Below are positions 12,001 through 63,640 of a stretch of 64,000 bases of DNA, piece after piece. This stretch comes from Scenedesmus sp. ARA3 (lineage: Eukaryota; Chlorophyta; Chlorophyceae; Sphaeropleales; Scenedesmaceae): positions 1 to 64,000 of the forward strand of contig RWJK01001659.1 of assembly GCA_004335835.1 (NCBI GenBank), in the 5' to 3' direction. A model generated the notes under the pieces. It saw only the letters and a list, made by a program, of their open reading frames with translations, did not search any database and was not told where the DNA came from. The position numbers were made by a program, and so were the translations under genes. Position 1 is the first letter of the stretch; each line of letters opens with the position of its first letter.

Positions 12001-15000
12001 CCTGCCCCCACATGGGGGCAGCAGGACGCCTGCTGCCCTCCGGCGGCGGCGCGGCCGCAGCACGTAGCGTGTCTACACAAACAGCGGCAGCAGGGGAACA
12101 CGCCATGCCCATTTGGGGGTTATTGTGATTGCATGGTGACACATACCCAAAACCTTTCCCTGCGGCAGTGACCGCGACAACAGCGCATCAAAAACACACA
12201 TTACATTACATTACATTACATGCTCCACTCAAAAACACGCAGTTAATATTCTACACCATGCAACCCCGCACCCTGATGCACCCGCAGATTTGCCCAGTGT
12301 ACAGCGGCCGACAGCAGCAGCAGCGCACCTGCATTGCCCAGCAGGTACATGCCGTGCTTGGCGCGCGACAGCAGCACGTTGATGCGGTTGCGCAGCCGCA
12401 GGAAGCCGATGTTGCCGTCTGGCCGGCTGCGCACCAGGCTCAGGATGACCACAGTCGCCTCCTCACCCTGCAGGGGAATGAGGCACGAAAGAAAGAAACA
12501 GCAGGCTTATGCTCAGCCACATTAGCGTGCTGGCTTTGGCATCCAAAACCTCGAGAAGGCTGGGCAGCTGTTGATGCACCAGGCTCAGGATGAACAGGGT
12601 GGCCTCCTCACCCTGCAGGGGCAACATATCACCCAATTACCGGGTAATCAGAATTATAGTAGGCCGCAGGCCCACCCAAAAAGGAGCCAAACAAGGCTGA
12701 TGGGGCTACAGGTAAGCAGGAAACAACAATCTTATGCTGAGCACAGTGTTGTGCCGGGCTAGGATTGTCAGCCCCTGGAGGGCTGGACAGCTGCTGACGC
12801 AGCATCATGCGCAGCTGCTGACAGGTTGTGTCTGCTTGGTGGGTTCCTGCAAGCTCGGCTGGCTGGTGCCTGGTGGCTGCATGACAGCTGCCTAACCAAA
12901 TGCAGCCTCTGATGTGGTGCAAGCTTGCAGTAGCACAGGTCAGTTCTTCTGGCAGCACACCGCATGATGTATGCCGCATGAGCATATCCCCACCAACGTT
13001 TTCCGGCCACCTTGACACTGCCAAGAACAGGTTGTTGTGCCTTTTGTCTCATGATAGACAGCAGATCTGCATCTCTAGAGGACAGGTTTGCTGCAACAAA
13101 CCCTACCTGGAAGTTGTCAATCGTAGCCAGCCGCAGGCAGCTCTGCATGTCAGTGACCGTAGTGCCACCAGCAGCAGCACCGCCACCTGCAGCACCACCA
13201 CTGCCGGTGTCGCCAGTGCTGCCAGCAGCAGCAGCAACATCACCACCACCACTAGCAGCAGCAGCAGCAGCATCGCCGGCTTCTACAGCTGCAACTGCTG
13301 CTGCTGTTGCTTCATCCACCAGCTTAGCCAGCTCCTCTGTGTCCCTGTCACTCAGCAGAACCCGCATGTTGCTGGCTGCCACTGCCTTGGTCAGCCTCCG
13401 CAGCTGGCCCACATATGGCGTGAGGATGACTAAATCACCTTCTTTGGTGTAGCCTTGCTTGATGAGGTAGCTGCAGCAAGGGCAAGCAAGCAGGAGAGAT
13501 AGTGTGCATGCAATCTCCAGCGATGTCATGAGAGCAAGTGAACTTGGCAGCACCGCAATGGGCATAGTCATGTACCCAGATTTCAGGTGTTTGCAGCCGC
13601 TGGTAAGTCCTTCCGCCTGCTGCACCCTACACACCCATGTTTCGCTGGAATTGGCAACACCAAAACAATACACTATTGCTTCACAAAGGTTGAATCTGCA
13701 TACGTTGCGTTTTAAAAACTTACCTGGCCAGCCCAACAGCCAGGTCAACCTCGTGGCAGTTGAACTTTGACCGGCTGTCATCCGCGCCTTGGCCGCCCTC
13801 AGGCACACTGTGATCCAGCATGAACAGCGGCTGCGCCATGCCCCGCACTGCCGGGTAAGCTGCCACACTGGGATGGTCACGCAGGCTGGGGTAGATGGGT
13901 GCACGGATGAGCCTGGGAAGAATCAACAGTGCAGCCATACACACAGATATGTAAGCACACATGCGTAACAGGAGTAGCAGGATGAGGATAGGAACAGCAG
14001 GAGTCTGATGCCGTCCATGCAAGGTGTATATCGCACATAATTGCACATGCAGCAACAGCAAGTGCACAGCATAAACCTGCTGCTGACACGTTTCATCAGC
14101 TTGAACACATGACAAGCCACGCAGCAGCAGTCAACCAGCAACAAGGTGGCAGTCGGCAAGCCCACCTGGAGATGTCGGGCCGCATGCGTCGCTGCTCCTG
14201 CAGCGTGACAACAGGGATGCTGCCGCTGCTCGCCAGCCGCTCAAAGGCGCTCACATCCAGGTTGTACCCACGCCCTGAGGCTGCTTCCAGGGGGTAGTAC
14301 TGCGGCTTGGGGCGCAGCTGCTCATGGTCGCCTGCAGCAGCCACGCGCACAGCTGAGCTGTCAAGCACAAGTTTGGCAGACGAGTCACGCTCAGCCGGCT
14401 GGCCGAAGTAATGGGGAGCAGGTGTAGGATTGGAGGATTGGAGGATTTGCATGTGCATGTTGGCAGGGTGTTGAGTCATATGTTTGTTATAAAATGAAGG
14501 CGGCGCAACAGAGTGTACAGCTGTCTGTGTCACACTGCTGCAGCTGCAGCCCTCACCAATCAGGATGACGTGCTCTGTTGCAGTGCTGAGTGAGGCCAGT
14601 GTGTGTGCCTCCAGCAGCTCCCCAGCTTCCTCAATCAGCAGCACCTGGCAGCAGCAGCAGCAGCAGCAGCAGGGCGCAGCATCTCAGCACCTACACACAA
14701 TTCTTCTGTACATGCAGCAGCATGAAATTGAGCCACAGCAGGCTGCAAGGCTGTACCAGGCCCTGCTGCACAACCGGCACAAGATGCAGCTGCAGCTAGA
14801 ATAACATGGCCTTTATAGCCTTCTCCATGATCCAGCCATATTAACAAGCGTTTCACCTTGGGATGCAGCCCCTCCACGAGGCTTCACCAGGCATTGATGC
14901 ACAGCTCACCCAAGCTGCACCCATAGCTGTCTTTGCATGCTCTTGTGAATCAAGCTTCATTGTCAAACAATTCTGCAGTGTCCCACCTTGGGCTGCAGTG

Positions 15001-18000
15001 CCTCCACCAGGTTCTGCATGCGAGCCACTCCGCTCGTGGTCATACCCACCACACGCGCACACCGCAGCGTCTGCGGCGACACAGATGCACAGACGTCAGC
15101 TAACACGTGGGTACACAAGTACATGCGCTGACTGACATCTTGCAGCCTGCTGTGCCTGCAGCAGCCAGCCAGCAGCCCATCCGTGCTGCACGCAGAAGTG
15201 CAGCCCACAACAGCTTTCACTGAACTAGCAGGCTGTGCCGCATTATGTTGTGTTGATAGTTGAGGTCGGCATACACTGTGCTCTGTTTGTCCTGCCGGTT
15301 TGCAGCGCACCTGCAGGCTGTTGGCGTCATACAGCTGCTGCAGCTGTGTGTTCCGACTGTCCAGTGCAGCGATGTCTCCTTGCAGAGCATCAGCAAAGCC
15401 TCCCACCAGCTGCTCCTTCAGGTGCTGCAGCAGCGTCTGTCGCTCAGCCCTGCATTGGTGGCAGCAGCAGCAGCAAGCGCCGGCAGCAGCAGCAGACATA
15501 GTAGTGCTAGTGGGGCTGCCAATGCACATCACACTGCAGCCCATCCTGCAGTGCTGCATGTGCATCTAGCTTACAGCAGCACCAGGCAGCATATGCAATT
15601 GCGCGCCTGCTGAGGCAAATTGGAGTTTTCTGAGCCGGGGAGCCTGTGAACCAAACAAGCTGGTGCATACACCGCGCCTCACCAGATGACAGTGCAAGAG
15701 AACCAGGCTTGGGCCGCCAAAGAGAGATGCACGTGTAGCAGCACACGTTTCGCCCAAGTTACACTATGTAATACGCACGCACCTGCTCATCATCGCTGCA
15801 TCAGTCTCCTCAAACAAAAGTTCCTCCAGCGGACGCCGGCGCTGGCAGGCAGCTGCCACAGCAGCAGGCACCGCAGCCTCTTCTTCAGCCGCTGCTGCTG
15901 CGGCTGGTGGTGGTGGTGGTGGTGGTGGAGGTGGTGGTGGATGCCACATGAATGGAGGCACCAGCTGCTGCTGCTGCTGCCAGTCATAGCCGAATGCGCC
16001 AGGCATTGGCTGCATCAATGGCTGCCCTGATAGCGCTAACAGCTGCTCGCTGCCGGCAGCTGCAGCCATGTCACCCAGTGCTGCAAAGGCGTTGCTGGTG
16101 GCCACAGGGACGGTGGCAGACGGCGCGTCAGCCGCCCAATAACCTGCAGTCACACCATGTCATACTTGTTTGAGTCAACGACTGCTTGCTGGAAGAGTTC
16201 TTCAAGTATACCTGACATACACCTATCACACAGATCTCTCAGCCTGCTATGCATTCTCTTTTGCTGCAGATACATGCCCTACTTTTGGCATGTACATGCC
16301 CTGTTGAACTGCTTCAACTGACTGCACAAAGCTGCTCTCACTTTGCATGCCGTAGCCGCCTGGCCCCTGCATCATCTGTGCATAATCGTCCCAGCCATCT
16401 AGCCCCATCTCCGCCTGCTGCTCTGCTAGCCTCTGTGCCTCTTCTGCTGCTGCCACCTCCCGCTGAAGCCTCCAGTCCTGCTCAGGATCACTTGCAACCC
16501 AGTGCATCAGCACGTCGCCTGCTGCTGCTGCTGCTGCAGCCCTGCGCTTTCTGCTGCCTGCCACCTGCCAGCCGGTTTCTTGCAGGATGTGTGGCCAGCT
16601 GCGGCGCTGTTCCAGGGAGGGCAGCAGCTGCGGAGCCTCCAGTAGCAGCACGTACCTCACATCCTCAAAATGCAGCCTGATGGTGGTGTCAGGGCCATGC
16701 AATCAGTGTCGACAAACGCAGCAGAAGCCCCAGCGTCAGTGGGTCAATGGAATTCATGCATTCAATAGCATTGTGTGCAGCGCAGCAAGTGTTAGCGTAG
16801 TGCATTGCTGGTTTGTCGGGACATGCTGCGTAGCACGCATGCAGATGACACACAATTACTCAACGTCAAACACAGCTGCCCCAGATGGCAACGTTGCTAT
16901 GGCTTAAATGGTAACATGATGATGACGATGACAGCTGCCCCAGATCAAGCAGTGCTGAAGTCAATGCTAATGCATGCTGATGGTCTCTCACCTGTCTGCC
17001 TTGGCGCGGTTCAGCTGCTGCACCTTGGTCTGTATGCCTTTTTCCGCATCCGTGATGGCAGCACGCAGCACAGCCACTTCACGGCCCCCAGCAGGGCCAG
17101 CCAGCTGCACGGCAGTGGTCATAATAATAACAAGGACAGGAATGCACAGCACAGCATCCAGACTTATTGTCAGGGTGCGATAGTCGAGAGCCTTTAAGAA
17201 CACCTGGTTGAATAAACACGAAGGTGACCTCTAGCGTGCAACCTCACAACGTCACACCTGCAGCCTGTTGCCACCACACTGTGCAGACCACACACTGCCT
17301 GCAGAGAAAGCACACCACCCTCGGCGCAACCAAAAACATGCTGTTTGACGCAACCTGCATGCGCGTCTGTTGTTGGCACCAGCTAGTGACTTGTCCGTAC
17401 AGGCACACAAACCCATTGTCTGCCGCTTACCTCCCGCAGGTTGTGGGGCTGCAGCCGCTCGCTCTTACCAACACAATCTACCTGAGTCGTGTTGGTCTGC
17501 CATGGACGCCTACTTTCAGACATACCCTGCCGCTCACCTCCCTCAGGTTGTAGGGCTGCAGCCGCTCGCTCTTGCTCCGTCCTCCCACGCGGATCATCTC
17601 CCCAGGATTTGCAGCCACGCCAGCATCAAGCAGGCCCTCCATCAAGCTATCTATTGCATGATTTGTGACAGTCACCATCAGGATGGGGCCGATGTCAGGC
17701 TTGCTGGCTGCTGCTGCTGTTGCAGGTGGTGGTGGTGGTCCTGCTGCTGCTGCTGCTGCTGCTGGAAGAGGTGGTGGTGGTGGCTGGTGCCGGAAGTCAG
17801 CTGTGAGCCTGCTGTGTATGTTGCAGGTGTTTGCCAGCAGGGCCTTCACCAGAAGGATGCCCACATACGTCTTGCCTGCAGCCAATTGCCTCAAGGATGA
17901 AATCATGTATGTGAGCAAGCTCAAGGGACCACAGCTGCAAATACATGCATTATAGTGCACGCTGGCAGGCGGCAGGAAGCTCACATAACAATGAAACCAG

Positions 18001-19135
18001 CAGTGAGCTTCTATGTGGTGGTTCTCCTTAATTCAGCAGCAGCAGCAGCAGCAGCGCACCTGTGCCAGGTGGCCCCTGGATCAGTGCCCACTCCTGTGTC
18101 AGGCCAGCAATGAGTGCATCAGCCTGGGCCCCATCCAGGGAGGTGCAGGCCAGCAGCAGCTGCTTCAGGGGAAAGCCGGCCAGCTGTGCCACGGGTATGT
18201 TCGACAGCCTGAACAAGATATGACACGATATGAAATCTCAGAGAAAAATGAGCAGGTTTGATTGAGTGGCAAGCAGGATGGACGGCAGTCGCAGCAGAAA
18301 AGCAGCAACCTGCTTCAACTGTGCTGCTGCGAGCTCACACTGTTACTGAGAACTGTGGGGAGGCAGCGCAGCATGCTGCAACGGCGCACTGCACTAGACA
18401 CCTGCACTTGACACGCGCAATGATGCATTGCACAATAGGATGTAGACAGACGTCACACCTGAGACGCAGCTCCTGCCCGTTGCCGTGGCGTGCTGCCAGG
18501 GCTGTGTCGCATATGCTGCTCAGGTCGAGCCTCGCACCCTCATCCGCCAGGTAAGCCGGCACAGGAATGCTTGTGATGCCATCTGGTAGCACGGCAGGAT
18601 GGACAGCAGAGAAGCACTGGTCAGCCAGGCATCAAGCATGTGCAGGTTGGTGCATGCGGCCTTGCCGACGGAGACGTCTGGTGGTGCTGTCGTAGCACGG
18701 TGCACGGCGCATACTGGACCATGTACTGCACCCAGTGCCACATCATGCACGGAAGCCGTGCAATACAGGCCGATTTGGCCAACGGCCATGATATTTGATG
18801 ACAAGCCACCCGCCTGGACCTGCCAGAGCAGTCGCCTGATAGCACATCATGGCAGCAAAAACAACAGCTGCTTTTAAACTAAACTATACTGATATTAGAA
18901 TATCAATATTCTCTCCAGACTGCAAAAATATTGATGTTCTCTCCAGACTGCATGGCAGCAAAAATCAGATATAGTACTAATATTTCTCCTGATATTCACG
19001 TGTACAAATTCAACATGTCACGGCACTCACCTGGCCCTGCCAGCCCAGGCACCAGGTAGCGCGCCATGGGCAGCACAGTGGTCTGCTGCAGCGCCTTGAG
19101 AATGGGCTCATATGCAAAGAAGCTGTTGCTGGCCT

Positions 19136-19170
<35 letters not shown>

Positions 19171-21266
19171 GTTTTCAGCTGCAGTGCCTTGAGTATGAGC
19201 TTGCACGCCAAGCATGTGTTGCTGGCGTGCAACAGCATACATCGCACATCACAACCGTTTCATCAGAAGCAGGCAAGCCTGCTCCAGCAAGAGCTCCTCT
19301 ATGCATCAGCAAATGTTCCGTACATAACCACAAGGACAGGCCTGGAAGGTTTTGACGTCGAAATCAAGCTGTACTCTGCTCCACACCTGCAGCAGCACCA
19401 CTTCACGGTTGCCAGCAAACTGGCCGTGCCCCAGGCAGGCCTGCAGCAGCAGCTCAGTGTCACGAGATGGCCTGCACAGGCTGCAGCGTGGAAATGGGAA
19501 GGCGGCAAAGTGACATGCAGTACACGCAGTGCAGGCAGCAGTGCAGGCAGTGGTCAGGCCCGCACTGCATCCGCAGGACAGGCATGACAGGCTGCAGCGA
19601 GGTGGCGGAAAGGCGGCATAATGACATTCAGCACAGGCAGTACATGCATAACAGGCAGTACGTATAACAGGCAGTACAGGCAGTACAGGCAGTACATGCA
19701 GTGCAGGCAGTACATGCAGGCAGTGGTCATGGCCAGCATCAAGGAGGGTGGATATAGAGTGGAGTGGCATGTCTGTCAGCCACAGCTCATGTGGCATGCG
19801 TGACAGGTTTCTTTGTGTTCAAAGGCAGCAAACTGCTGGGCTGTGAGCAAACACCTGCAGCTCCAGCAGATGCTCGCAGTAGGTCTTGCACTTCAGGCGT
19901 TGTGAGTTATGCGAAGCACATGAAGCCTTGCAGAGCCTGCTAGTGCCACTGCGGCAGGCTGAAATCTATCAGTACACGTTTGAAGGTGTGTTGCCATCCC
20001 ACCTTATGCCCAAACAGCACCGCACGCCCGCATCGTCGCTGCCGCCGCTGCTGCTGCCATCCACTGGAACACCTGCAAGCTTCCGCGCATCCCTGTCCAC
20101 CACAGTCGCAAAAATGATGTGCGGCTCGACAGCAGCTGTGCCACCAACACCACCCAAATCTCCACCACCAGCACCGCCAGCAGCAGCAGCAGCAGCGCCC
20201 AGCCTCGCCCTGCGTGCTGCGAGCTGTGCTGATGCTGCAGCTGGCTCCTGCCAGAGTGCGATGAGGCTGCCGTTCTCCAGCTGCTTGCTGTGCTTCCAGA
20301 AGTCCAGCTTGTCGCGGGTGGGGCGGCCCTGCAACCCTGCCGGCTCGGCAAAAGATACCTACAAATTCATCAGATCAAAGGCAGCAAGTGATGCAGATGC
20401 TGTGAGATTTTTGGAGTGCAGCGCAGCCGCAGCCATGCGGAGCAGCTTGGTGCAGCCAAGCTGATATGAAAGCCAGCACCTGGAAACTGGGCACTGCGCT
20501 ATCAAAGTGCCACCAACGGCTGCATCTGCACCGCATGGGGCTGCTCAGCACCTGCTGCCATTTGCAGTATGAGATATTCAGCAATGCTTGCAAGCAGTTG
20601 CTGTAATAGGCAGGCTGGTACACATGCCTTTGGTTCTGCAAGCGCATACAAGACTCAGCTGCAGATATATGTTTGAAAAATCAATCAAATAAATGTATGA
20701 AAACCAGATGAGGGCTGTATAGAAACCCCACCTCGAAGAAGATGCCGGTCCTTTGCTGTGCGCACAGCTGCTCGATGCCCACGCGCCTGTACACGTTGAG
20801 GCTGCTGTTGCTGCTGAAGTTGACGCGGCTGCCGCGGCTCTGCGCCTGCAGCACGCACAAAATAGAGGACAAGGCGAGCTTCAGTGGACATCTTGCAGAA
20901 CTCTCGTTCATGTTGGATGATGCAAAGATGCAGGAACAGGTGACAGAACACCATGCGCTAGCTAGCTCCATTTCAGTTGATCTCCCCACCATGCGTGCAT
21001 CCAGGCCTGCAACGCCTCCCGCGTCCTTCGTGGCGCCAATCAGGTCCGCCAGCAGCTCACTATGCGTGGTTCTACCGCTCACATTTATGACATTGACAGT
21101 TCACACCTTGCGTGCATCCAGGCCAGCAATGCCTCCCGCGTCCTTCATGGCACCAACTGAATCAATCAGGTCTGCCAGCAGGTCGTGGTGAGTCAGCCGG
21201 AAGTGCAGGTCCAGGTGGGCATCAGTGGGGGAGATGCCCTCGGCAACAAGTGCACCGCCAGGACTA

Positions 21267-21327
<61 letters not shown>

Positions 21328-21377
21328 NNNNNNNNNNNNNNNNNNNNNNNNNNNNNNNNNNNNNNNNNNNNNNNNNN

Positions 21378-21436
<59 letters not shown>

Positions 21437-24400
21437 TGCGGTGAGTCAGCCGGAAGTGCAGGTCCAAGTGGGCATCAGTGGGGGAGATGCCCTCGGCAAC
21501 AAGTGCACCGCCAGGGCTGCAGCGGCATCACAATCAGCAGCAGTAGCAGCAGCGGCGGTAGGGTTAGTTGAGTGTTGCTGCATGTGCATGCGCATCTGCT
21601 GAAACAAGTGAACTTCTACCACCCATGCTGACCAAGAGGTTTTTAAACATGTCGCAACCAGCGCTAGCATGAGCAGCATTGATATAACGGCTTGCTGTCG
21701 ACACAAGGCAGGCTCGCACACAGCTCTGCTGACAGCTTCGGGCACGCATCAGCTCACATGTTGCGCGGCAGGTATGGGTCGACATCGCACAGCACCTGCT
21801 GCTGCGTGGGTGCGATGCTGATGCGCCTGAAGTCAGCGTGGTCGTTGTCATGGCGAGGGCCGCCCGGCTGCCGCAGCTCGCCTGCAGGGGATGCCGCCAG
21901 CAAGCAAATCGACAATGCATGCAACAAAGTGTGGCAAAGATGGAACAGTGAAGTGAGTGTGCTGTTGAATGCTGGCTCTGATAGCATTGACAGCAAAGTT
22001 GCGAGAAGTGCACGTGGCTGTGTGGCATGTGGCTTGCTTAGTCAACGCTCTTGTCAAAACAGTGACAAGAGGTGAGCAGATCAGCGCTACTGGTGAAGCC
22101 GTAATCATGGGTAGATGTGTACCACCTTCCAGGCAAACCTACCTGGAAGCTGCTCTGGCAGTACTGGCCGAACTCTGCGGGCAGTTGCAGCCGATGCAGC
22201 AGCTGCCGCCTGCCGTGTGCGCTGCTGCAGCGTGGACAGTGCCGCATCGCAGTTCATACGCTGGCCGAGCACCCTGCAGCAGATATGCACATTGACAGCA
22301 GAGACAGGAATGCGGTGCACGATCAAGTCACTGAATAGGAATGCATGTCGCAGGCTGAAGGGGCACATGCTTGCCACGAGTCAATTTGCATGGCGCGTCC
22401 CACAAGATTGTGTCTGCCGCATGCAGCAACACACTCGTGCGTCCGCTTGCCAGCAAAGTATGCAGCACCACGCAGCACAACAGATGCACCCTGCTTCTCA
22501 TATTTGGTTGCAGAGCCTCACCCTTGCAGCTGCTCCAGCTTTAACTGCAGCCTCCTTGAGCGGACGCCTTGAGCTGCAGCACCGCAAGCTGCTGGGAAGC
22601 GCCGCCAGTGATCATCCACCACTACCACCAGCTGCAGCACGCCTGCAGCAGCACACACAGCACGCATGCTTGCATATCACGAACCTCTGGGTCTGTAATT
22701 GCAGCTGCACGACAGTCACGGCAAGAACAGCCTGTCAATTATCACATGTAAGATCTGAATGAGTAACACTAGTGAAGATTCATCTCTTCTCACCCTCCTT
22801 GCGCTGCTGCCAGGCCCCATCCTGCCTAAACCTCCTCAGCACCTCCAGCAGGTACCACACCAACGGCTCCAACACATCAAGCCACCCTTTTGTCTCCCAG
22901 CAGCCCTGCAGCCCTTCTGTCACAGCCCACACTGCGGCAGGCCCGCCCATGGCTGCTGCAGCAGTTGCAGCAGGCCCTGCATTGCTCAGGCTGCTGCTGC
23001 TGCTGCTGCTGTCTCCTAATACAGCATCTGCAGCAGCTTGAGAGCTGGTGTTCTGGCTTGTGCTGCTGGTATCAGGTGTGCTTGGCAAAGCAGCCATCAG
23101 CTGCCGAGCCATGGCTGCGCAGCGGGCGTGGTCGAGGTCTTGGAAGAGAGCTGCGTAGATGGTGCTGGTGTGCTGCTTGCTGGGGCTGTTCTGGATGCGA
23201 GGGTCGCACAGCAGCCGCAGCAGCGGCAGCAGGCAGGCCTGGAATGGCAGCAGGTTGCTGGGCTGCAGCAGCACGCAATTGCAAGGCAGTGGAAATAGAA
23301 GTAGCAGCGGCAGGGGCAGAGACTGCCGTCGGTTGCGTGTGTTGGCTTATACTTGGTTTAGGAAGATCTGGCAGAGATACTGGACCACCATGCGGCTTGA
23401 TCGCTCAACACCCGAAACTATTTGCTGTTTACTCTGTTCTGGAAGGCAGCACGCAACAAGCTCACCCCTGATCTGGAGCATACAGTCTTTCAGGAGAGCG
23501 ACTTGCGCAGCAGTCACGCGAGTGATAAACCCACGCACAGGTTTGCAGACATTGATAACCAGCTCACCTGCAGCAGGTTGACACCAGCAGCAGCAGCGTT
23601 TGGCGAGTCCAACACCAGCTTGCAGTTGGCGCCACTTGCCGTGCTGCACACCAGCTCCCGCAGCAGCTCAAGCCCTGACATGCTTGCTGCTGCTGCCCCA
23701 GTGTATGATGAGCCCCTGCTGCTGCTGCTGCCGAGGGCTTCTAGCACCACTAGGTCTTCTCCAGCTTCCAGTAGGGCCCAGGCCAGCTGGATGAGCCAGC
23801 AGAGGTCACTGGGGCGCCTTGCGTTGCCTGACGTGAGCCTGCAATGCCGCACGTGTGCAAGCAACAAGGAGTGAGGTGGGAGCACGCGTGTCAGCAAGGG
23901 TGCGTTGTGCGGATATGGCATGACCCCTGAGACTGAGGTCTGTGCTTGCATGCTTGCTTGCTCCAGCAATGATTCAACGTGGCCAACATTGTTTTGGGAT
24001 AGAGAACAGGGACACCAGCTGCCAGAATGGCACAGGAGATGGCAGCACGCTGCCCTGCTTAGCAGCATGTAACAGCTGGCAGTATGATCACGTGCCATGA
24101 CATGTGTGATGTATGGTGCTGCTGCTAGCTTCTTCACTGCCGCGTCACCCTGTCAATGTTACATCTCTTGGCTGAGTATGATACCCATTCAGATATGGTG
24201 TCGATGAAACCAAATTGGACTTGCACACGCCATACTATGTGTCAACTGCCACTGCAGCCAGCAACTCTCAAGCTGCGCACCTTTTCAAGCACATGTAGAA
24301 CTGGCTCCTGGTGTTGGAGTTGGACTGCTGCCCAGGCCTCTGCCCTTGCATGGTCCCACTCCCATTCTTGACCACACCAGATCTTGTGTAGTCACCTGCA

Positions 24401-26252: not shown

Positions 26253-26284
<32 letters not shown>

Positions 26285-27544: not shown

Positions 27545-29287
27545 CCTAGCTACTAGCTAGACTGTTGAACAGCCTGTGGCTTGGCCAGGCCCTGATATGA
27601 ATCGTGCCAAGGTTAGCTGACTGCGTGTACTGGAGGCTTGCGGCTGTGCCACAGACAGTGTCTGCACGGTACGTTTAATCCCTATGTAGCGGTATACCGT
27701 ACACACTTTTTGGCGTGATGATGGGTGCATTGTGTAACGCATAGGTTGCAATACAACTCTGCTCATCTGGCGCTTGGGCCACGTGTTGCAGGCAGTGCCC
27801 TGACAGAGTCTGTCACAGCCACTGTGACGGCAATGCAGTTTTCGTAAGCCAGTTGTCAAGGCGGTTACACATGTCATGCACTTCAGCTGCAGCCCTCACA
27901 CCCGCACGACATATCAACAGCAGTCGTGGACATAACGCGTCGCGTCACACGTGTAATGTGTACATTACTGTGAAAGCGGCACGACGGCGCGCTTTGTGTC
28001 GCATCTTGGGACACTGTAATAACTGCAAAAGGTCCAGCCTGGCAGCAGCAAGCATAGCGGGTCACAGCCCAGCTGGCAGCCGCTGCTCTGAAGTCAAGTG
28101 CCAGCCACACTCACCAACACAAGACAACTGGGTGAACTTTACGAAGCCACAAAATCATGTGCAGGGGCATAGTCATGCTAAGCCACCGTGGGCCTTAAAC
28201 ACTTGATAAAACGCCACCAGCACATATACCGTCTTTGTGACAGTGACTGTGCTGTAAGATCCGGCTGGCAGGTTGCCTGACGTAACACAGGCTGCATGCC
28301 TTGCCAAATGCCCGGCTGAAAGCCCCACAGGGGCGCCCAGCATTTGACAAGAGCAGATGTGCACACAGAGCCCCAGAGGTCTGCAAAAAAGGTACGTAGC
28401 AAACGCGCAGATCACGCTTCAAAGCATGCAGAGCATCAAAAGAGCATATGTCAACGAGCAGCGCTGCTGCTGCTGCTGGCACCACTGCCAGCAACTTCTG
28501 CTCCAACTGCACTGTACAGCAACCTCTCATCGGGTACCTGCCACAGCTGGCTCCCCTGCTGTCTCCCAAAATGCATGCACAGCTGTGCATCAAGATAAAC
28601 TGATGCAACCCAGCCAGGAAGAAGCTAGCAGCCTCTCGCCGCTTGAGACAACATGCAACACCTGCACTGCAACTGTTTTGCATGCACCCAGGCGCATGCA
28701 GTATACTGTGCATTGCCACTGGACCATGCACGCTTTATGGGGGTCGTTCTCTGATGCTACTTGCTTCAAACAACCCGGCAGCCAAGGCTCCAGGCATGAA
28801 CAGGCACAAACAGGCTAAGACCTTACAACGCTGGTCTGCTCCGCTGATGTGCCTGCCACTGCGGCAGCCTGAGGCATACAATCATCAGCAACAAAGACAC
28901 AAGGCAATATGAAACAAGCAGACATACTGTACTCACGCATCCTTTTTGCGCTGAGATCACCCCATGTCCCTCACCCACCCATACGCAGCTGTACTCCGTG
29001 GCGCTGCGCAAGCCACTGCAAGCAGCGCTGGAGCTCCGGGGCACACACGTTTGCTGCATCCTCTCCGTGTTCTCATCACTGGGTTACGCTCAGCAACACT
29101 GCCTTTACTTTGCGCTCTCCGGCTTGCGCACCAGGAAAAAGAACAGGCTGCCCTCGGCAACCACGCCGCAGACCTGCTGCCGCATCTGCTGCTGCATGTA
29201 TGCCGCCACCGCCAGCCATGCCGCACATCTGCTGCTGCTTTTGCTGCTGCTTCTCCTGCCACCGCCAACTTCCTGCATGCCTGCTGC
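27545..29287. other. Convergent intergenic region, hub gene / SMT1
   Basis: This holds 3' untranslated sequence of both genes. TGTAA is at 27733 (plus strand) and at 28827-28823 (minus strand). Decayed copies of the SMT1 terminal exon lie at about 28940 and 29089-29140. No independent gene was recognised. Confidence 0.5.
29085..29140 (-). repeat. Copy of the SMT1 terminal coding segment beyond the stop codon
   Basis: The codons for the SMT1 C-terminus ([12 protein letters not shown] and stop) at 29288-29330 recur here, about 190 bp downstream of the real stop, with the stop preserved. A fainter fragment lies near 28940. Confidence 0.7.
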
Positions 29288-31155
29288 TTACTTTGCGCTC
29301 TCCGGCTTGCGCACCAGGAAGAAGAACAGCGGCGTGAACAGGCCCATCTTGCCGCCAGCAACCAGCCCGTCTGCTGCGCGCTCCAGCATTGATGCAACCT
29401 CCAAGCTGCCCTTGGGAGCCACGCCAAAGCGCTCCAGCACCTTAACCAGGTGGTGCGTGACATAGCGGCCCGCCTTGGTGGTGCGGAAGTCTGCAGGAAT
29501 ACAGACATGTTGTGCAACGGATGTCAGGAGACAAGAGAGTGTAAGCAGGCAGGTGGGGTGAGCAGCGCTCCAGCACCTTGACCAGGTAGTGCGTGGCGTA
29601 GCGGCCCGCCTTGGTGGTGCGGAAGTCTGCAACACAGGTACATACATACGTGCAACGGGTGTGAGCAGCTGGCAGGGAGAAGTAGGGGGCACACAATGCC
29701 TTGGTGGCGCGGAGGTCTGCAAAGTAGTTTGTAGAGACGCGCGGCGGATGCATGCAAGCAGGCACGGAACCAGAGGGAAGCATGTTGGAAAGTGGACACG
29801 CCACCAGAGATACAAGCACAGAGGTAAATGGCGCAACCGGCGACACCAGGCGCACGCAACGAGCCCACAACCACCGCCGCGGTCAGCAAAACTCCGTCAG
29901 CCAGCAGCATCCGCAACTCTCTCTGCAGCCGGGTCCAGTTGTCGGGGCCCACAGAAACCTTACACACAATGCAACATATGCAGTGTAATGGCAGATATAT
30001 AGTGTAACTGCAACACAAATCCCAACTCACTCTGCAGCCGCGTCCAGTTGTCGGGGTCCATGGAACCCTTACACACAATGCAACATATGCAGTGTAATGG
30101 TAGATATGTACTGTAACTGCGACACCATTTTCAACTCACTCTGCAGCCGCGTCCAGTTGTCGGGGTCCACGGGAACCTTACCCACAATGCAACATATGCA
30201 GAACTCTGGCAGACATCAAGTATTATGAAGAAGATGCCACAAATGTCTTCTACTCACTCTGCAGCCGCGTCCAGTTGTCGGGATCCACGGGGTCCCACCA
30301 GGTGATGTCTGCGCTCAGCGCCAGGTCAGCGCTGTCTACGAGCTCAAAGCCAGCCTTCTGCAGCGCCTCCAGCGTCTGCTTGGTGGTGCTGCGGGTGCAT
30401 AAGAGATAGCGGCAACAAACAGTGACAGATATGTAAGATGCGTGAGAAGTCAACGGAAAGATGTCCACCACCTCAAAGCAAGCCTTCTGCAGCGCCTCCA
30501 GCGTCTGCTTGGTGGTGCTGCGGGTTCAATGCAGCAGGATGCGGCGGAGCAGGATAGATAAGTATGTGTGAGTAGTGCTTCGAAAACAGGTGCCCACAGG
30601 CTCAAAACCAGCCTTCTGCAGTGCCTCCAGCGTCTGCTTGGTGGTGCTGCAGATGTACGACAGTGAAGGTAACAGAACAGGTGCGAGCCATAGACTGGGT
30701 ATTGAACAAAGAGAGCAACAGTAAAATGGTGCTGCTGGCGAGGCACTGTAACAAGTATGTAGGCGGTGCGCGGCAGCCCGCGCAAGCCACACATGCAAGT
30801 GCTACCAGAGAATGCACAACACCACACATGATCTAATACAAACATGCCATTACAATCTGGCGATCCACATTAGCCGCCGCACTCACCGCACATCAGGCAG
30901 GCCGTTGCCCAGCTCGATCTCTGCCATGATGGACTTGTGGTTGGGGTTGGTGGGGTCGTACAGGTCGGTGGCGCACCACTCGTAGCCTGCAAAGTACTGC
31001 CCAGGCTTCAGCACGCGCAAGATCTCCTGCAGGTGCCAGCAGCAACAGCAGCAGCAGCAGCAGCAATATTGGTTGGATTTGGTTGCGTCGTACAGGTCAG
31101 TAGCCAGCAAAGTACTGCCCGGGCTTCAGCACGCGCAGGATCTCCTGCAGATGCC

Positions 31156-31195
<40 letters not shown>

Positions 31196-31385
31196 TTTTG
31201 TTGAAGTTGTTTGGTCGTACACGTCAGTAGCCTGCAAAGTACTGCCCGGGCTTCAGCACACGCAGGATCTCCTGCAGGTGCCAGCGGCAGCAGCAATATC
31301 GGTTGGAGTTGGTTGGGTCGTACAGGTCAGTAGCATGCAAAGTACTGCCCGGGCTTCAGCACGCGCAGGATTTCCTGCAGATGCC

Positions 31386-31428
<43 letters not shown>

Positions 31429-34400
31429 TTTTGTTGAAGTTGTTTGGTCGTACAGGTCAGTAGCCGGCAAAGTACTGCCCGGGCTTCAGCACCCACAGGA
31501 TATCCTGCAAGTGCAGCAACAGCAGCAGCAACAGTGTTCGACTTTGTAACTGGGTGTGCTGACAACCAGCTTATCTGGCCGCAAAGAACGCACCTGCACA
31601 CCTCTAACTTGACGCCACGTCCCTGCCACATTTCTGCAGCAGCAACCAACTACGCTTGAAACCTCGCTGTTGCTCTGTGTCCCTGTGTTCACAGGCCCGC
31701 TCACCTTGTAGCAACCAACCTGGTCTGGCGCGTGGCAGGTGGCGTCGATCTGGTAAACTGCATCAAAGCTGCAGCTGCTGCTGCCGCTGCTGCCTGTGCT
31801 TCTGAAGGCACAGGGCAGCCTCTCACCTTGTAGCAGCCGACCTGGTCTGGCGTGTGGCATGCCGCCTTGATGCGGCAACCTTCTGCTGCTGCTGCTGTTT
31901 CTAGGTGTTTATGAGCACGCAACCGGTTAGTTCTTCTCGTATCACCCTTGTCTCACCTTGTAGCAGCCGACCCGGTCCGGCGCGTTGCAGGTGGCGTCGA
32001 TCTGGTACACTGCATCAAAGCTGGCATCCTCGAAAGGCATCTTCATAAAGTCCGCCTTCACAAAGCAACCTCTCACCTTGCAGCAGCCTACCTTGTATGG
32101 CGTGTGGCATGCCGCTTCGATGCGGCAACCTTGTGCTGCTGCTGCTGCTGTGTCTACATGTTAGTGAGCACGCAACCTGTTCTTCTTGTATCACCCTTGT
32201 CTCACCTTGTAGCAGCCGACCTGGTCCGGCGCGTGGCATGTCGCGTCGATCTGGTACACTGCGTCAAAGCTGGCATCCTCGAAAGGCATCTTCATAAAGT
32301 CTGCCTTCACGAAGCGGCTGATCTGGTCCAGGTTGCGCCCGGTGCGGCCGTTGTGGTACAGCGCGCGGCTGATCTGGTACGCGTTGTTGTTCAGGCCTGC
32401 GGTGCACAACAAAGTTAAGCATGTCGGCGGCGTGTCATGAATCAAAGTAGGCAGATGTGCAGGCATTTGTGGCAACGCGGGAGGCTGATGTGGTACGCGT
32501 TGTTGTTCAGGCCTGCAGCGCATGTGTATGCACAATGCAGTATGCACGAAAGTCAGGGGCTTTGTGTAACAGATGCTGTTGGCGAGCAATGATGCACAGC
32601 GCAGCGTTTCGAGCGCGACGCTTCAAATGCAACAGCACGACGCCATTGCTGCTCATCAGCTGCTACACGACCACAGGGCATTGCGCACATCTGCACCCTG
32701 CTGCTGCAAGAGCCTCAAGCGTGCGCAAGCCCTACAACCACACCCCCTGCTGCTGCTGCTGCTGCTGCTCCTCCTGCAGGTGCGCTCTCTGCCCAGCTGC
32801 CAGCCAGCAGGGCCAGAGCTACTGCAGCTGCACTGCACACTAGCAAGCAAGCCAAAGCCCAATACTGCAGCTGCAGGGCACGCACCGGTTACGTGTGCGC
32901 CTGAGAACAGCGCAATCTCCCTGAGGGGACCGCCGATGCCGCAGCCCACATCCAGGCACTTGTCTCCTGCAGGACAACAAGCAGCGCAGCAAACAGGGAA
33001 GCACAGCGATTAGAACAATACGTCAGCTTCACCACACGCACAACACGCACGTGGGAACACTTGTCTCCTGCAGGACAGCAAGCAGCGCAGCACATACAGT
33101 ACAGCGCAGCAGATGATATTATCAACACCAGATCGGCAACACGCATGTGTGAGACAGAGAAGCAACAGCAGCTCGATGTTCTGCTATGCATCGCAGGGCA
33201 CCGAAGGCACAAACCAATAATTGGCGTGTGCGCTTACACACAAGGCAAGTGTTGTTTGACACCAATCTATACGCGTCAACATACTTCACGGTAATAACAG
33301 TATGTGATCAGTGCACCAGCATAGAACCACAGCATACAACCACAACCAAGTACATCAACGTCTCCTGGCTCTCCCAGGTGACTTCAACGTACTTGGCTGC
33401 TGTTGTGTGCATAGCCCCCGGGAACCCATGTTGCATGCAAGCAACAGTATTGCACAATGCACAAATAGCAGCCGGCCAGCAGCATAAGCCAAGCCACTCA
33501 AACACATAGCCTTCGCAGCACAGCTCTGACTGCTGCTTGCGACCCCTCCCAACTGCTGTGATTGCTCTCTGCTAGCGCAGTCCTGCAGAACCCTACCCTC
33601 GGGTGAAGCCTGCATGCACAATCAAAGCCCTCCCTGGGCCAACACCAACTCCAACGCTCTCCTGGAAGCCAAGAGACTTCTAGCAACAATGGCAGATCTA
33701 CTTGAGGCTCACGCAGCTTGCTACGACCTGATGCACAGCTGCAGCCCCTCCCGCAAGCACTTTAAACGCAACTGTCTCCTGCAGCCCAGCCGCACCTGGC
33801 TTCAGCCCCAGGCGCAGCGCCAGGTAGTGCTCCTTTGCAGCTGCAATTACTTCAGCAAGCACTGTATATGTGTGACCAGAAAAAGACAGAAACAATTCTC
33901 CTGCAGCCACGCCTCACCTGGCTTGAGCCCCAGGCGCAGTGCCAGGTAGTGCTCGTGCCGCCGGATGCTCTCCATGTGCGTCTCGTGCTTCAGCCTGTGC
34001 GCAAAGTGGAAGGAGGTGCCCCAGCCTGCAGGAAATGGTGAAAAATGGTGCAGCAGAGACAGGTGTGAGATGGTGCAGCAACATCAGCAGCAGGAGGAGG
34101 AGGAGGAGGGCATAGGGGTTGTTATTTGTTAATGGCAGAGCCAAGCGGTGTCAGGGGCGTGGTGTACAATTGCATATGCGATGGGCTTGCTCGCTTACAT
34201 AATGAGTTTGCTTGCAAGATGTGCCAACATGGCAGAAGGGAGGAACTGCAGAATACTCCAGCACGTGCACGTCTACATCTGCATGTGTACACACGTGTAC
34301 AAAGCCTGTGCATGGCTGCATGCTGTTTGGGCCAATTGCCAGCGCAAAACATGCTATGTGCAGGGCTCATCAAACCTTGGTTGCTGGCATGCTGTTTGGC

Positions 34401-35064
34401 ATGTGCTGATGATCAAGCAGACTGCTATTGTGAGGTCATACACTGCTGCTCGCAGACTAGCGCCAATGAAGCACACGTTGCTAGAGAAGCTGGCACTGTG
34501 TACTGGTGCTGAAACTGCTGCAGCCAGGCATCAGGTCTTGCATGGGACGCACCATACTCGTAGAAGGATGTGGCCAGGTCATAGTATTTGTTGACCATGT
34601 CTGCATACTGCGACTTGCGTGCCTCCACGTCGCCTCCATGCGTGGTGTGGTACTTCTGCACTCATCAGGTGCCCACACACAAGGCAGCAGCGTCAAGCAG
34701 TGAAGGCGGGAGGTGACACCAAACGGAGCGCATGCGATCAGCTGCAATGGTCAACAATTAAGTAATCGCTGAGCTGCCTTTTGGTTCGCTGCAGGTCCCA
34801 AGCAGGTGAACAATTGCTAGCTGGCACCGAGTGCACTTAGCTTCCAGTCCTCAACTCTGATCCTGATTGTTACATTCATTCAATTACATCCGTTCAAATA
34901 CGTTGTAACCATCAGCTGCCTGACGGGCCTGCATCGTCCAGCCCGCCAACGGGTTGGGGCTGACAACGCCCTTTGCGCACCTCGTACTTGTCTATGTCCT
35001 CAGCAACCCTTTCTGCAGATCGCGATGTGATTTGAGGAGTAATGAAAGTGGCGGGAGTAGTCAT
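29288..35064 (-). CDS. SMT1: Sterol C-24 methyltransferase (cycloartenol type)
   Basis: Eight in-phase exons (35064-34981, 34655-34553, 34025-33918, 32966-32886, 32396-32206, 31026-30887, 30388-30258, 29490-29288) give 346 aa, the normal family length. The enzyme transfers methyl from S-adenosylmethionine to C-24 of cycloartenol-type sterols at the endoplasmic reticulum, the branch step to ergosterol/phytosterol-type algal sterols. Seen: [14 protein letters not shown] (sterol-binding region I); SAM motif [44 protein letters not shown] (region II); [24 protein letters not shown]; and a C-terminal SMT domain ending [17 protein letters not shown]. The N-terminus ([11 protein letters not shown]) is encoded in a small first exon found by phase. 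Most introns carry tandem copies of adjoining exon ends, listed as repeats; only the exon-proximal splice sites keep the frame. Start at 35064 faces the HD-domain gene. Confidence 0.95.
29430..29722 (-). repeat. SMT1 exon 8 acceptor array (3 copies)
   Basis: The exon 8 start (FRTTKAGRY region) with its acceptor occurs at 29430-29496 (genuine), 29565-29633 and 29698-29722. The copies lie upstream in the intron, about 136 and 93 bp apart, and show substitutions such as the Thr/Ala and His/Tyr changes in their translation. Confidence 0.85.
29913..30290 (-). repeat. SMT1 exon 7 donor array (4 copies)
   Basis: The exon 7 end (DPDNWTRLQ plus GTGAGT) is at 30251-30290 (genuine) and is repeated at 30131-30177, 30024-30068 and 29913-29958. 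The units are 105-120 bp and share a spacer containing ACAATGCAACATATGCAG. The last copy has lost the GTGAGT donor. Confidence 0.88.
30344..30655 (-). repeat. SMT1 exon 7 acceptor array (3 copies)
   Basis: The exon 7 start (CACCACCAAGCAGACGCTGG onward) is at 30344-30388 (genuine), with copies at 30473-30523 and 30600-30648, spaced about 130 bp apart. Both ends of exon 7 are therefore duplicated outward into their own introns. Confidence 0.88.
30950..31515 (-). repeat. SMT1 exon 6 acceptor array (5 copies, higher-order)
   Basis: The exon 6 start ([15 protein letters not shown]) with its CTGCAG acceptor is at 30950-31031 (genuine), with copies near 31087, 31207, 31317 and 31447. All four copies lack the same 13-14 bases found in the genuine exon between the GGCTAC and GACCTG motifs. 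Spacers alternate between a GGTTGG type and a CTTTTGTTGAAG type, so a two-unit block was itself reduplicated. CAG tracts of 7-13 units sit in the spacers. Confidence 0.9.
31700..32318 (-). repeat. SMT1 exon 5 donor array (5 copies)
   Basis: The exon 5 end ([14 protein letters not shown] plus GTGAGA) is at 32200-32318 (genuine). Copies lie at 32068-32128, 31949-32063, 31822-31883 and 31700-31770, in long and short versions. Most copies keep AAG|GTGAG. Confidence 0.9.
32484..32522 (-). repeat. Copy of the SMT1 exon 5 acceptor
   Basis: GGTACGCGTTGTTGTTCAGG and the adjoining CCTGCAG at 32377-32400 (genuine) recur at about 32490-32516, in the upstream intron. Confidence 0.75.
32955..33090 (-). 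repeat. Copy of the SMT1 exon 4 acceptor
   Basis: CACTTGTCTCCTGCAGGACA at 32958-32977 (exon 4 boundary) recurs at 33058-33077, followed in both by AGCAAGCAGCGCAGCA-like sequence. Confidence 0.75.
33793..33960 (-). repeat. Copy of the SMT1 exon 3 donor
   Basis: The exon 3 end ([11 protein letters not shown]) at 33918-33957 recurs at about 33790-33833 with several substitutions, 125 bp into the intron. Confidence 0.75.
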
Positions 35065-35472
35065 CTTGGCGCTGCTGTTGGATGGAGTGTGTACAGGATT
35101 AAACTGCTTGTTGGCCTTTCGTCTCTTTCACACAATACACACACACGGCAGAAGAAGCGTGAACGTAATCGCAGGCACTTAGGCCAGGATGCACGGCCGC
35201 GGTGAATTTGGGTAGCTGTGCATGACACTGTCACTATGGCACTTTGAAGTTGAGACGCATTGGCCCTCGTAAAAAGGATGCCTTTGCACCCAACTGCAAT
35301 TTGATCGCTTGTTCAGCAACGTTTTGATCAATATTCGCCTTTGTAGCATAGCTGTACCTGCTGACTTGCAGTGATCCACACCCTCTGTGGCTGCATCAGT
35401 CTGCTGTGCAGGCACCAAGGCAGTTCAGCAGCAGCGTAGCTCTGCAACAGGCGGCAGTCTCAAGCAGCAGCA
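35065..35472. promoter_or_regulatory. Divergent promoter between SMT1 and the HD-domain gene
   Basis: These 408 bp separate two start codons on opposite strands. The minus strand must hold the SMT1 promoter and 5' untranslated region, the plus strand those of the HD gene. The region is richer in A and T than the flanks. No specific element was identified. Confidence 0.55.
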
Positions 35473-38402: not shown

Positions 38403-39661
38403 TTACTTTGCGAGCAGCATGCGCACAAACTCCTCGTACTGGATTTTGCCATCACTGTCTGGGTCTGCCTCGCGGATCATGTCCTCCATCTCGGGCGCAG
38501 ACAGCTTCTCGCCGATGTTGGTCAGCACGTGGCGCAGCTCCTTGGCCTCAATAAAACCGCGCTGATCCTTGTCAAAGACCTGCGGCCATTGACAACAAAA
38601 CAACTGTTATTGAGTGCTTTGCAAAATGTTGCTTCTTGGCCATGATGCAGCCGCGCTGGTCCTTGGCGAAGACCTGCAATCACATACAAAGATCGTGCAT
38701 GATGGTCTGCAGGATCCTTTGCGGGATGGTTGGCAGGGTGTTGGTCAGCACGCGGCCCAGTCCTTTGGCCTCAATCAGCCCGCCCTTGTCAAACACCGGC
38801 AGCGGCACCGCACCACAGCGCACACAATAACACCCATCAGCAGCAAGGTTCCTGCAAGGGTGGTGAGGTGCAAGAAACAACAACCTGCTACCAGGCTTGT
38901 GCCGTGCCTGCACTGCATTCAACTGCGTGCTGATGTTTGGTCATTGCAAATGAAGGCTCCGCACTGCTAACACACCGTTTCAGTTGTGTCGTGCCTGCAT
39001 TAATATAGATGCCTTCACCAATGCTTCCTCTGCCTGCTGCTGCTACGCACTGCTGACTTTGAACTTGACCCTGCCGCACATGCTGCACAGCCTGCATAGC
39101 CGTTAGTTCCTACCTTCCATGCGTTGCGGATGTCCCGCTCTGAGTCGTAGCTGCGGATCTCACGGCTCATCACCCCCAGGAACTCTGCAGCAGCAAAGCA
39201 CATGCTGCAAGGATAAGGCGGCACATCTTGCAGGTCATGGCAGCAGTAGCACTCAACGCTGAAACACTGCATGCATGCACATGAGCGGCAAGATTGCAAG
39301 TTGGCCGGCCATGACATGCAAGAATCCAACTTGTACGTATAAACTGTTCGATCCTGTTGCTGCCTGTGCATGTCTCAGCATCAACTGCCCAGGCAGTTTT
39401 GTTGCCTTCACTGCTGCTTGGCTCAACGTGGCACCGACAGCCAAGCGTATGCGTGCGCTCACCCTGAAGGTTGATCACACCCCTGCCATCGGCATCCACT
39501 TCTTTAATCAGGCTGCGGACCTCTGCCTCTGTTGGATTCTTGCCCAGCGCACGCATCACAGTGCCCAGCTCGCCGGTGGTGATGCATCCATCATTATCCT
39601 TATCAAATAGCGCAAATGCCTCCTTCGCCTCAGAGGTCTGAGCGTCTGTCAGGGGTGCCAT
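38403..39661 (-). CDS. Calmodulin / calmodulin-like protein, four EF-hands
   Basis: Three in-phase exons (39661-39463, 39184-39114, 38579-38403) give 148 aa, exactly calmodulin length. The protein is a Ca2+ sensor that binds amphipathic target helices. EF-hand loops seen: [12 protein letters not shown] (1), [12 protein letters not shown] (2), [12 protein letters not shown] (3), [12 protein letters not shown] (4). Calmodulin signatures between them include [36 protein letters not shown] and [10 protein letters not shown]. Loops 2 and 3 have Arg at loop position 5, where canonical calmodulin has Asn or Asp, so Ca2+ affinity of these sites may be lower. The second half of the linker is also diverged ([18 protein letters not shown]). 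It could be the organism's main calmodulin or a calmodulin-like paralogue. The exon 3 acceptor region is copied into the intron. Confidence 0.92.
38520..38800 (-). repeat. Calmodulin exon 3 acceptor array (2 decayed copies)
   Basis: The genuine exon 3 start ([20 protein letters not shown]) is at 38515-38579. A short copy with its own acceptor is at about 38638-38675 and a longer one at about 38735-38795, where the EF-hand loop is shortened. These are acceptor-side decoys inside the intron. Confidence 0.75.
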
Positions 39662-54500: not shown

Positions 54501-54775
54501 GCAGCTGAAGATGTGCTCTTTGATCAGCAGCAGCCTCACCTATGCTGATTGCAAATACAAGGAACCTGGCTCAGCTTGAAGCTGGTGAAAGGATCTGTTC
54601 AAAAGGCACTTTTGTTTTCTTTGACTAGAATCTGCAAGCTCACCTGTGCTGAGTATGGCAAAGCCAATAAAGCTGGGTGCAAGCAGGCGCATGCCGCGGG
54701 GCAGCCAGGGCAGTATACTGTCCTGCAGGTGCAGCCCATACAGCGGCCTGGAGCCCACCAGCACGTCCTGCAGAT

Positions 54776-54806
<31 letters not shown>

Positions 54807-56653: not shown

Positions 56654-56686
<33 letters not shown>

Positions 56687-61046: not shown

Positions 61047-61088
<42 letters not shown>

Positions 61089-61209
61089 TGCTGTTCACAT
61101 GTGGTGCCTGGCAGTAGTGCATGGCTGCGAGCTGAAGAGTGAGGGAGTACCCTTGCCAGCTGACAGACCAGCAACAAGCATGTTACAATCAGGAGGTGAC
61201 AAGTAGGCG

Positions 61210-61244
<35 letters not shown>

Positions 61245-63571: not shown

Positions 63572-63640
63572 TTAGAACTGCTCGACATCCACATAAGAGC
63601 TAGGCACCAGCCCCCGCGCTCCATCGCCGTCCCTTGCCAC
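63424..63640 (-). repeat. Copy of the SH3 terminal coding segment beyond the stop
   Basis: The segment coding for GLVPSSYVDVEQF (63575-63640) recurs at about 63424-63486, downstream of the stop codon, with substitutions. Confidence 0.75.

What the first reader, a model, noticed from the sequence alone, without database searches (positions are those of the whole stretch)
29288..33960. Splice-junction duplication arrays: exon ends and their splice sites are tandemly copied into introns, in most introns of one gene
In SMT1, segments of 40-110 bp made of an exon end plus its donor or acceptor are repeated two to five times inside the adjoining intron: exon 3 donor, exon 4 acceptor, exon 5 both ends, exon 6 acceptor, exon 7 both ends, exon 8 acceptor. 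Only the exon-proximal site keeps the reading frame; the others are decoys. The same pattern recurs in the glucan-synthase, ZNFX1-like, calmodulin and SH3 genes, so it is a property of this genome. It implies a recurrent process that targets or tolerates duplication at splice junctions and makes introns longer. Tandem duplication of AG|GT segments is a known proposed route to new introns; arrays at existing junctions on this scale are, to my knowledge, not a standard description.
Basis: partly seen in the sequence, partly recalled or inferred. Interest (0 to 1): 0.92.

Follow-up and report, generated by a model that had tools for sequence, protein, structure and literature searches.

The report
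Exon ends copied into algal introns
In a green alga, the last or first fifty or so bases of many exons, together with their splice site, are copied once to several times into the neighbouring intron at steps of about 120 bases, which suggests that introns can grow by local re-copying of splice junctions.

Summary
SMT1 (sterol 24-C-methyltransferase; its spliced product equals a Tetradesmus obliquus protein) has extra exon-end copies at 8 of 14 splice junctions and one at the CDS end. One reader detail is wrong: the nearest exon 7 acceptor copy stays in frame. In 324 kb of this genome (window plus 26 ten-kb samples) 67 of 412 introns carry such copies, 42 of 323 outside the window, far above cross-gene controls. 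New facts: copies step at about 120 bp; the copied exon part is about 50 bp; intergenic tiles almost lack local copies (4 of 891); copies stay near 90% identical while the sequence between them is often unrelated. Simulated neutral tandem duplication fails; re-copying from the live exon, or direct templated insertion, fits in kind, and I cannot separate these two. A protein from another alga, on an independent contig, shows an exon 5 start copy about 100 bp upstream, so a one-assembly artefact is unlikely. Introns with copies are longer (median 448 against 253 bp; 240 without the arrays). The copies are not whole exons, Introners or the AG|GT intron-gain product. My limited paper searches showed no description. 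No RNA or long-read test was possible; the mechanism is inferred.

The parts
29288..35064 (-). SMT1 gene, 8 coding exons: E1 35064-34981, E2 34655-34553, E3 34025-33918, E4 32966-32886, E5 32396-32206, E6 31026-30887, E7 30388-30258, E8 29490-29288 (stop included)
   Evidence: these exons translate to P0001 exactly
33775..33832 (-). E3 donor copy (exon end plus splice site), 122 bp from the real one, 91% identical
33058..33092 (-). E4 acceptor copy, 101 bp away, 97% over 35 bp
32457..32522 (-). E5 acceptor copy, about 116 bp away; an exon 5 start copy is read in P0129 of another alga
31700..32145 (-). E5 donor array: four copies with last exon-like base near 32077, 31957, 31827 and 31705
31100..31527 (-). 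E6 acceptor array: four copies (31100-31147, 31227-31274, 31330-31377, 31460-31507); read by eye, the E6-like parts lack a short piece of the real exon
30462..30650 (-). E7 acceptor array: two copies, offsets 129 (in frame, open) and 258
29909..30201 (-). E7 donor array: three copies, offsets 118, 227, 336; 109-bp tandem period
29564..29716 (-). E8 acceptor copies: offset 136 (29564-29668) and a 24-bp piece at 226
29105..29146 (-). Copy of the CDS end with its stop codon, downstream of the gene, 98% identical
8873..21556 (-).
   Evidence: AAA_11
51985..63875 (-). Exon-end copies in the glycosyltransferase/alpha-amylase/SH3-like gene
38516..38803 (-). Weak acceptor copies (94 and 217 bp away, 75-79% identical) of an EF-hand exon

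Best explanation
Step 1: about 120-bp segments that span a splice junction become duplicated in tandem, which leaves a spare exon end plus splice site in the intron; repetition gives arrays of one to four spares. Step 2: the spare exon-like part is re-copied now and then from the live exon (short gene-conversion-like template switching between direct repeats about 120 bp apart), so it stays near 90% identical while the intron part between copies drifts to unrelated sequence. The gene tolerates this because the exon-proximal site is the one spliced; introns grow. Shown: the copies, their register, exon footprint, near absence from intergenic tiles, the decoupling of copy and spacer divergence, and the link with intron length. 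Inferred: the duplication event itself, the re-copying, and the non-use of the spares.
For: Of 109 steps between successive copies 90 fall at 80-159 bp (offsets). Exon part median 48 bp, alike at donors and acceptors, not uniform over the allowed range (KS p about 9e-10, 48 of 53 junctions). Residual spacer homology up to .97 shows tandem origin for part of the arrays: 36 of 83 spacer comparisons exceed the 99% control value .17 (counted from the printed list). Copy identity stays near .91 whatever the spacer score (median .17, Spearman .25, n=67). The neutral model (k=1) gives spacer medians .53-.62 and rho .73-.80 over the six settings tried; slowing the copies by a constant factor up to 5 keeps rho >= .53. 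Re-copying gives rho .04-.31 and spacer medians .06-.38 over 13 settings. Three genes checked by homology: SMT1, STAG-like, xylose isomerase. Another alga: P0129.
Against: The templated-insertion model fits the same statistics. With frequent re-copying (six settings) the median copy identity is too high (.95-.97, observed .91); rarer re-copying (seven settings) gives .92-.94. All these runs predict too many copies of at least 95% identity (.37-.60; observed 11 of 67). Pure re-copying allows a silent/non-silent ratio of at most about 2; observed 2.96, bootstrap 2.26-3.77, which hints at constraint or at a higher mutation rate at silent sites. No direct sign of conversion tracts: identity inside the copies is flat with distance from the junction. 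Most exon annotation is from my own gene finder.
Confidence: 0.45

Rival explanations
1. One-step templated insertion: break repair in the intron copies the nearby exon end and splice site (about 50-60 bp) to a place about 120 bp away, so the spacer is simply old intron; fully homologous arrays are later tandem amplification.
For: In 44 incompletely matching pairs the spacer is at control level; the similarity stops within about 10 bp of the donor; simulation with 30-50% tandem cases gives spacer medians .09-.19, rho .04-.26 and copy identity .90-.92, as close to the data as re-copying or closer.
Against: 11 of 27 single-copy junctions have a spacer comparison above the 99% control value, and 13 of 50 spacers exceed the 95% control against their +-1 kb surroundings (long spacers that hold a middle copy among them); tandem origin is needed there. 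It does not by itself explain the register or the preference for exon ends over intron sequence. Its runs also predict too many near-identical copies (.29-.35; observed 11 of 67).
Confidence: 0.25
2. Ordinary neutral tandem duplication plus survivorship: duplications inside exons are lost, and exon-side copies stay recognisable because the source exon is conserved.
For: Known process; the exon side diverges mainly on one lineage; donor GT kept in 47 of 60 copies found with exon-only queries, about what neutral decay gives.
Against: Simulated with the same detection it predicts spacer median .53-.62, rho .73-.80 and 2-6% of near-identical copies with poor spacers; observed .17.25 and 8 of 11. 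Intergenic tiles nearly lack copies (4 of 891). The exon part is not uniform.
Confidence: 0.12
3. The copies are functional splice modules (exon-end enhancer region plus splice site) kept by selection, for instance for alternative or unproductive splicing.
For: Acceptor copies found with exon-only queries keep AG in 41 of 46; the 12 with diverged flanks still have more pyrimidine than background (p .0014); copy sites score higher than after 9% random change; silent ratio 2.96. A constant slow-down of 2-3 matches the spacer quartiles.
Against: The same slow-down does not match rho or the near-identical class. Donor copies lose GT in 13 of 60. Indels in copies are mostly not multiples of three (30 of 35, 11 of 18). 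No opposite splice site at the copy edge. Donor and acceptor copies co-occur more within exons (odds 10.6) than within introns (odds 5.6), so they are not paired by intron.
Confidence: 0.11
4. Assembly artefact: divergent haplotypes or read-length effects joined in series.
For: The assembly has gaps (a 50-N run in the window, longer N runs in samples); the register is close to short-read lengths; differences are richer at third codon positions.
Against: Most indels in copies break the frame (30 of 35, 11 of 18), unlike alleles of a working exon; up to four copies, many with unlike spacers; an exon-start copy in another alga on an independent contig.
Confidence: 0.05

Closest known systems
Intron gain by tandem genomic duplication of an AGGT-containing exon piece (PMC3443670, passages read)
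   Same: Local duplication of exonic sequence that carries splice signals
   Different: There a new intron forms between the two copies; here introns carry extra copies of the same kind of site about 120 bp from the real one
Introners (PMC9860276, two passages read)
   Same: Sequence additions tied to introns; that paper found Introners mainly in fast-evolving lineages such as green algae
   Different: Copies are local and gene-specific; 50 spacers showed no family beyond CAG-type low complexity in the matches printed
Minisatellites and other tandem repeats
   Same: Some arrays are full tandem repeats of 100-130 bp
   Different: Concentrated at junctions, almost absent from intergenic tiles, many spacers unrelated
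Tandem exon duplication and mutually exclusive exons (recalled)
   Same: Extra exon-like sequence in introns
   Different: Only one exon end is copied; the opposite splice site is not enriched

Membership tests
Tandem-duplication intron gain | New intron lies between two copies of one exonic AGGT segment, so the upstream exon end is repeated directly at the acceptor | tested here: not met
   Copies lie about 120 bp from their own junction and repeat the same kind of site; age of the introns was not tested
Introner family | Similar intron sequences at many unrelated genes | tested here: not met
   50 spacers compared with each other: the matches printed (first 20) are CAG-type low complexity; 324-kb sample only, whole genome not searched
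Plain tandem repeat (minisatellite) | Homology runs through the whole unit | tested here: inconclusive
   Met in part: spacer comparisons run from .97 to control level; 44 of 67 pairs with offset under 200 match less than three quarters of the offset
Plain tandem repeat (minisatellite) | No dependence on gene structure | tested here: not met
   Tiles: junction 158/1171, intron 277/5169, intergenic 4/891; circular-shift null, junction share .556 against .411 (s.d. .046), the highest of 300 shifts equalled the observed value
Tandem exon duplication | Copy carries both splice sites | tested here: not met
   Opposite site score >=5 in 6/35 donor-type and 0/34 acceptor-type copies; control .184 and .065
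Decoy exon or regulated alternative site | Splicing machinery uses or binds the copy | not testable with these tools
   No RNA data; indirect signs only

The most novel reading that the evidence does not exclude
Sphaeroplealean algae have an ongoing, exon-templated local copying process with an about 120-bp ruler that keeps planting and refreshing splice-site modules in introns, a distinct route of intron growth and a supply of ready-made alternative splice sites.
Probability: 0.35. Interest if true: 0.87.

Novelty: new variant of a known kind. Interest (0 to 1): 0.72.

Why it matters
How introns lengthen, and where new splice sites come from, is usually argued from single cases. Here about one intron in six of the sampled sequence (one in eight outside the window) carries spare splice sites in a measurable register, so birth, refreshing and loss of splice sites could be followed directly between strains, and splice-site choice could be tested against natural near-identical decoys.

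Tried and rejected
Self-trained gene finder, first version, over-predicted introns and started from a partly mis-phased SMT1; replaced by the version. That version also started from slightly mis-phased SMT1 exons (its printed translation shows frame slips), yet its output places SMT1 E1, E2, E3, E5, E6, E7 and E8 to within 4 bp; E4 is 7 bp short, and several SMT1 decoys are called as exons. Decoys as cassette exons: rejected, no opposite splice site. Spacers as inverted local copies: 1 of 50 above the 95% control, not supported. Donor-acceptor pairing for nested splicing: co-occurrence is stronger by exon than by intron. Strong splice-site constraint: suggested and weakened by exon-only detection of donors. 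Search for the gene in other collections: genome contigs gave 65 loci, by their titles bacterial; viral contigs none. The STAG-gene protein search listed 8 proteins, none named T. obliquus (my guess is that the full protein is outside the length limit), but it gave the related transcript protein P0121. The direct hope of finding the T. obliquus copies themselves in independent data failed: none of the 17 proteins is a T. obliquus intron reading frame, as far as names and the 13 sequences fetched show. Paper searches: 9, open-licence PMC only, with capped lists (20 of 158, 20 of 781 and 20 of 31 shown); no title or abstract start shown describes such arrays. Papers: passages seen in PMC9860276, PMC3443670, PMC5966456, PMC3488318; all others only as search listings.

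Row handling: loci with more than 3000 N were left out of gene-finder training (L023, L027) but were annotated later; one search used 884 of 911 junctions; one search kept pairs with exactly one anchored junction, 69 of 99; one search looked at the 68 junctions of those pairs and found copies at 67; one search used 67 junctions, one search used 62.
Full report
What the gene is. The minus-strand gene at 35064-29288 was rebuilt from the window. Its eight exons translate exactly to a Tetradesmus obliquus protein (P0001; the longest contig listed for it has 5.1 Mb); the next best hit, 86%, is Scenedesmus sp. PABB004. The window's assembly has 87.3 Mb in 1567 contigs. Protein-guided mapping shows each real exon and, beside several of them, shorter copies.

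Against their own introns these eight junctions score 18.0-50.8 and the six others 7.0-10.1. The reading-frame claim fails for one copy: the E7 acceptor copy 129 bp upstream lies in the same open frame.

It is a genome property. I sampled 26 stretches of 10 kb (24 of them contig starts, which may be richer in repeats) and used the window as well, 324 kb, about 0.4% of the assembly. Exons came from a self-trained gene finder, checked by homology in three genes: SMT1; a STAG/stromalin gene in L022 (related transcript protein P0121; Pfam STAG and SCD); and xylose isomerase in L023, whose exons, typed without the predicted decoy exons, align in line with solved structures. Exon-end 50-mers have a copy within 600 bp at 131 of 884 junctions (97 of 695 outside the window) against 25 of 4420 controls. 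Some of these junctions belong to copies that the gene finder called as exons. After such false exons were removed, 67 of 412 introns carry a copy, 42 of 323 outside the window. The effect is uneven: seven of the 26 sample loci, each with ten or more usable junctions, show none (an eighth has one usable junction only), while L006, L022, L017 and SMT1 show many.

It is not just any local repeat. Among 50-bp tiles, a local copy exists for 158 of 1171 junction tiles, 277 of 5169 intron tiles, 167 of 2657 exon tiles and 4 of 891 intergenic tiles. Of 99 adjacent pairs, 61 join exon or junction sequence to intron (33.8 expected from 300 circular shifts) and 10 are purely intronic (27.7 expected); the junction share is .556 against .411 with s.d. 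.046, and the highest of the 300 shifts reached the observed value. In exons of 170 bp or more, copies in the adjoining intron fall from 18 of 272 tiles at 0-30 bp to 2 of 255 at 90-120 bp and 1 of 259 at 135-165 bp; the same tiles against one random intron of another locus gave none (192-226 tests per distance).

Register and footprint. Offsets peak at 100-140 bp, with a second peak near 220-260, and one lies below 80. With a more sensitive search, 67 of 68 such junctions show 109 copies (38 with one, 20 with two, 5 with three, 4 with four), and 90 of 109 steps between successive copies are 80-159 bp. The copied exon part has median 48 bp (n=53), alike at donors (mean 47.2) and acceptors (51.6), and is not uniform over the allowed range.

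Copies and spacers are decoupled. At donors the identity is about .9 for the last 25 exon bases and the first few intron bases and .38-.51 from +10 on. In 44 pairs chosen for incomplete matching the spacer is as unlike its counterpart as in controls (median .16 against .17; 7 and 4 of 44 above the 95% control for the two sides tested). Across 83 spacer comparisons the similarity runs from .97 down to control level, 36 above the 99% control, so tandem origin is plain in part of the cases. Copy identity barely follows spacer similarity (Spearman .25, n=67; 8 of 11 copies of at least 95% identity have spacer scores of .42 or less). A neutral tandem-duplication model put through the same detection gives rho .73-.80 and spacer medians .53-.62; slowing the copies by a constant factor of 2 to 3 matches the spacer quartiles, but up to a factor of 5 rho stays at .53 or more. 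Re-copying from the exon (13 settings: rho .04-.31, spacer medians .06-.38, copy identity .92-.97) and insertion with an unrelated spacer (3 settings: rho .04-.26, medians .09-.19, copy identity .90-.92) both come near; both predict too many copies of 95% or more (.29-.60; observed 11 of 67), so the fit is in kind and not exact, and I cannot separate the two. I prefer re-copying because of the residual spacer homology in single-copy cases (11 of 27).

Are the copies in use? Acceptor copies found by exon-only queries keep AG in 41 of 46 and mostly have good site scores. Donor copies found in the same way keep GT in only 47 of 60, about the neutral expectation. Indels in copies are mostly frame-breaking (30 of 35, 11 of 18), so they do not look coding, and this also speaks against misassembled alleles. 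The fourfold to non-silent difference ratio is 2.96 (2.26-3.77), above the limit of 2 for free decay, a hint of constraint or of mutation bias. Copies carry no opposite splice site at their inner edge. Function therefore stays open, and I rate it lower than non-use.

Effect on introns. Introns with copies are longer (median 448 against 253 bp) and would have a median of 240 bp without the arrays; arrays make up 10.9% of the sampled intron sequence. A published annotation of a T. obliquus assembly of another size (strain UTEX 393, 107.7 Mb) gives a mean intron of 462 bp (PMC5966456, passages).

Beyond this species. A chimeric query of window intron reading frames returned P0129, 114 residues from a JGI contig of 7194 bp and, by its differing exon 5, another alga. 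Its first 16 residues read like a shifted-frame translation of the exon 5 start, about 33 codons upstream of the real exon 5 start (my reading by eye). Its first residue is M where an intact acceptor copy would give R, so that copy may have lost its AG. Its decoy and ours seem to differ from their own exons at different places, so common descent with re-copying and independent origin both remain open. P0136, from another relative, seems to run from exon 4 to exon 5 with no such copy (by eye). DNA of these relatives could not be fetched.

Relation to known kinds. The nearest published idea is intron gain by tandem genomic duplication (PMC3443670), whose product has a different geometry. Introners are dispersed families; the spacers compared here are not. 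Nine paper searches (open-licence PMC only, lists capped) showed no description of phased exon-end arrays at existing junctions; this does not cover subscription journals.

Noticed in passing
window 21328-21377: A run of exactly 50 N inside a CAG repeat in the helicase-like gene: probably a scaffold gap.
   Followed up: no
window 38403-63870: Predicted long gene whose parts match SH3 (weakly), alpha-amylase and group 1 glycosyltransferase, joined by the gene finder to an EF-hand exon at 38403-38579 that probably belongs to a separate gene.
   Followed up: partly
window 26052-27544: Small gene with a CaMKII association domain (PF08332).
   Followed up: no
window 35065-35472: Only about 408 bp separate SMT1 from a divergent HD-domain gene (35473-37562): a possible shared promoter.
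   Followed up: no
window 49189-49245: A 30-bp unit repeated 1.9 times with 100% match.
   Followed up: no
L029-L093: Sterol methyltransferase-like genes, matched in one stretch each (41-52% identical), in many bacterial metagenome-assembled genomes (Myxococcales, Nitrospira and others).
   Followed up: no
P0129 and P0136: Intron-spanning reading frames in protein databases can reveal exon-end copies in other algae without any DNA; a cheap survey route.
   Followed up: partly
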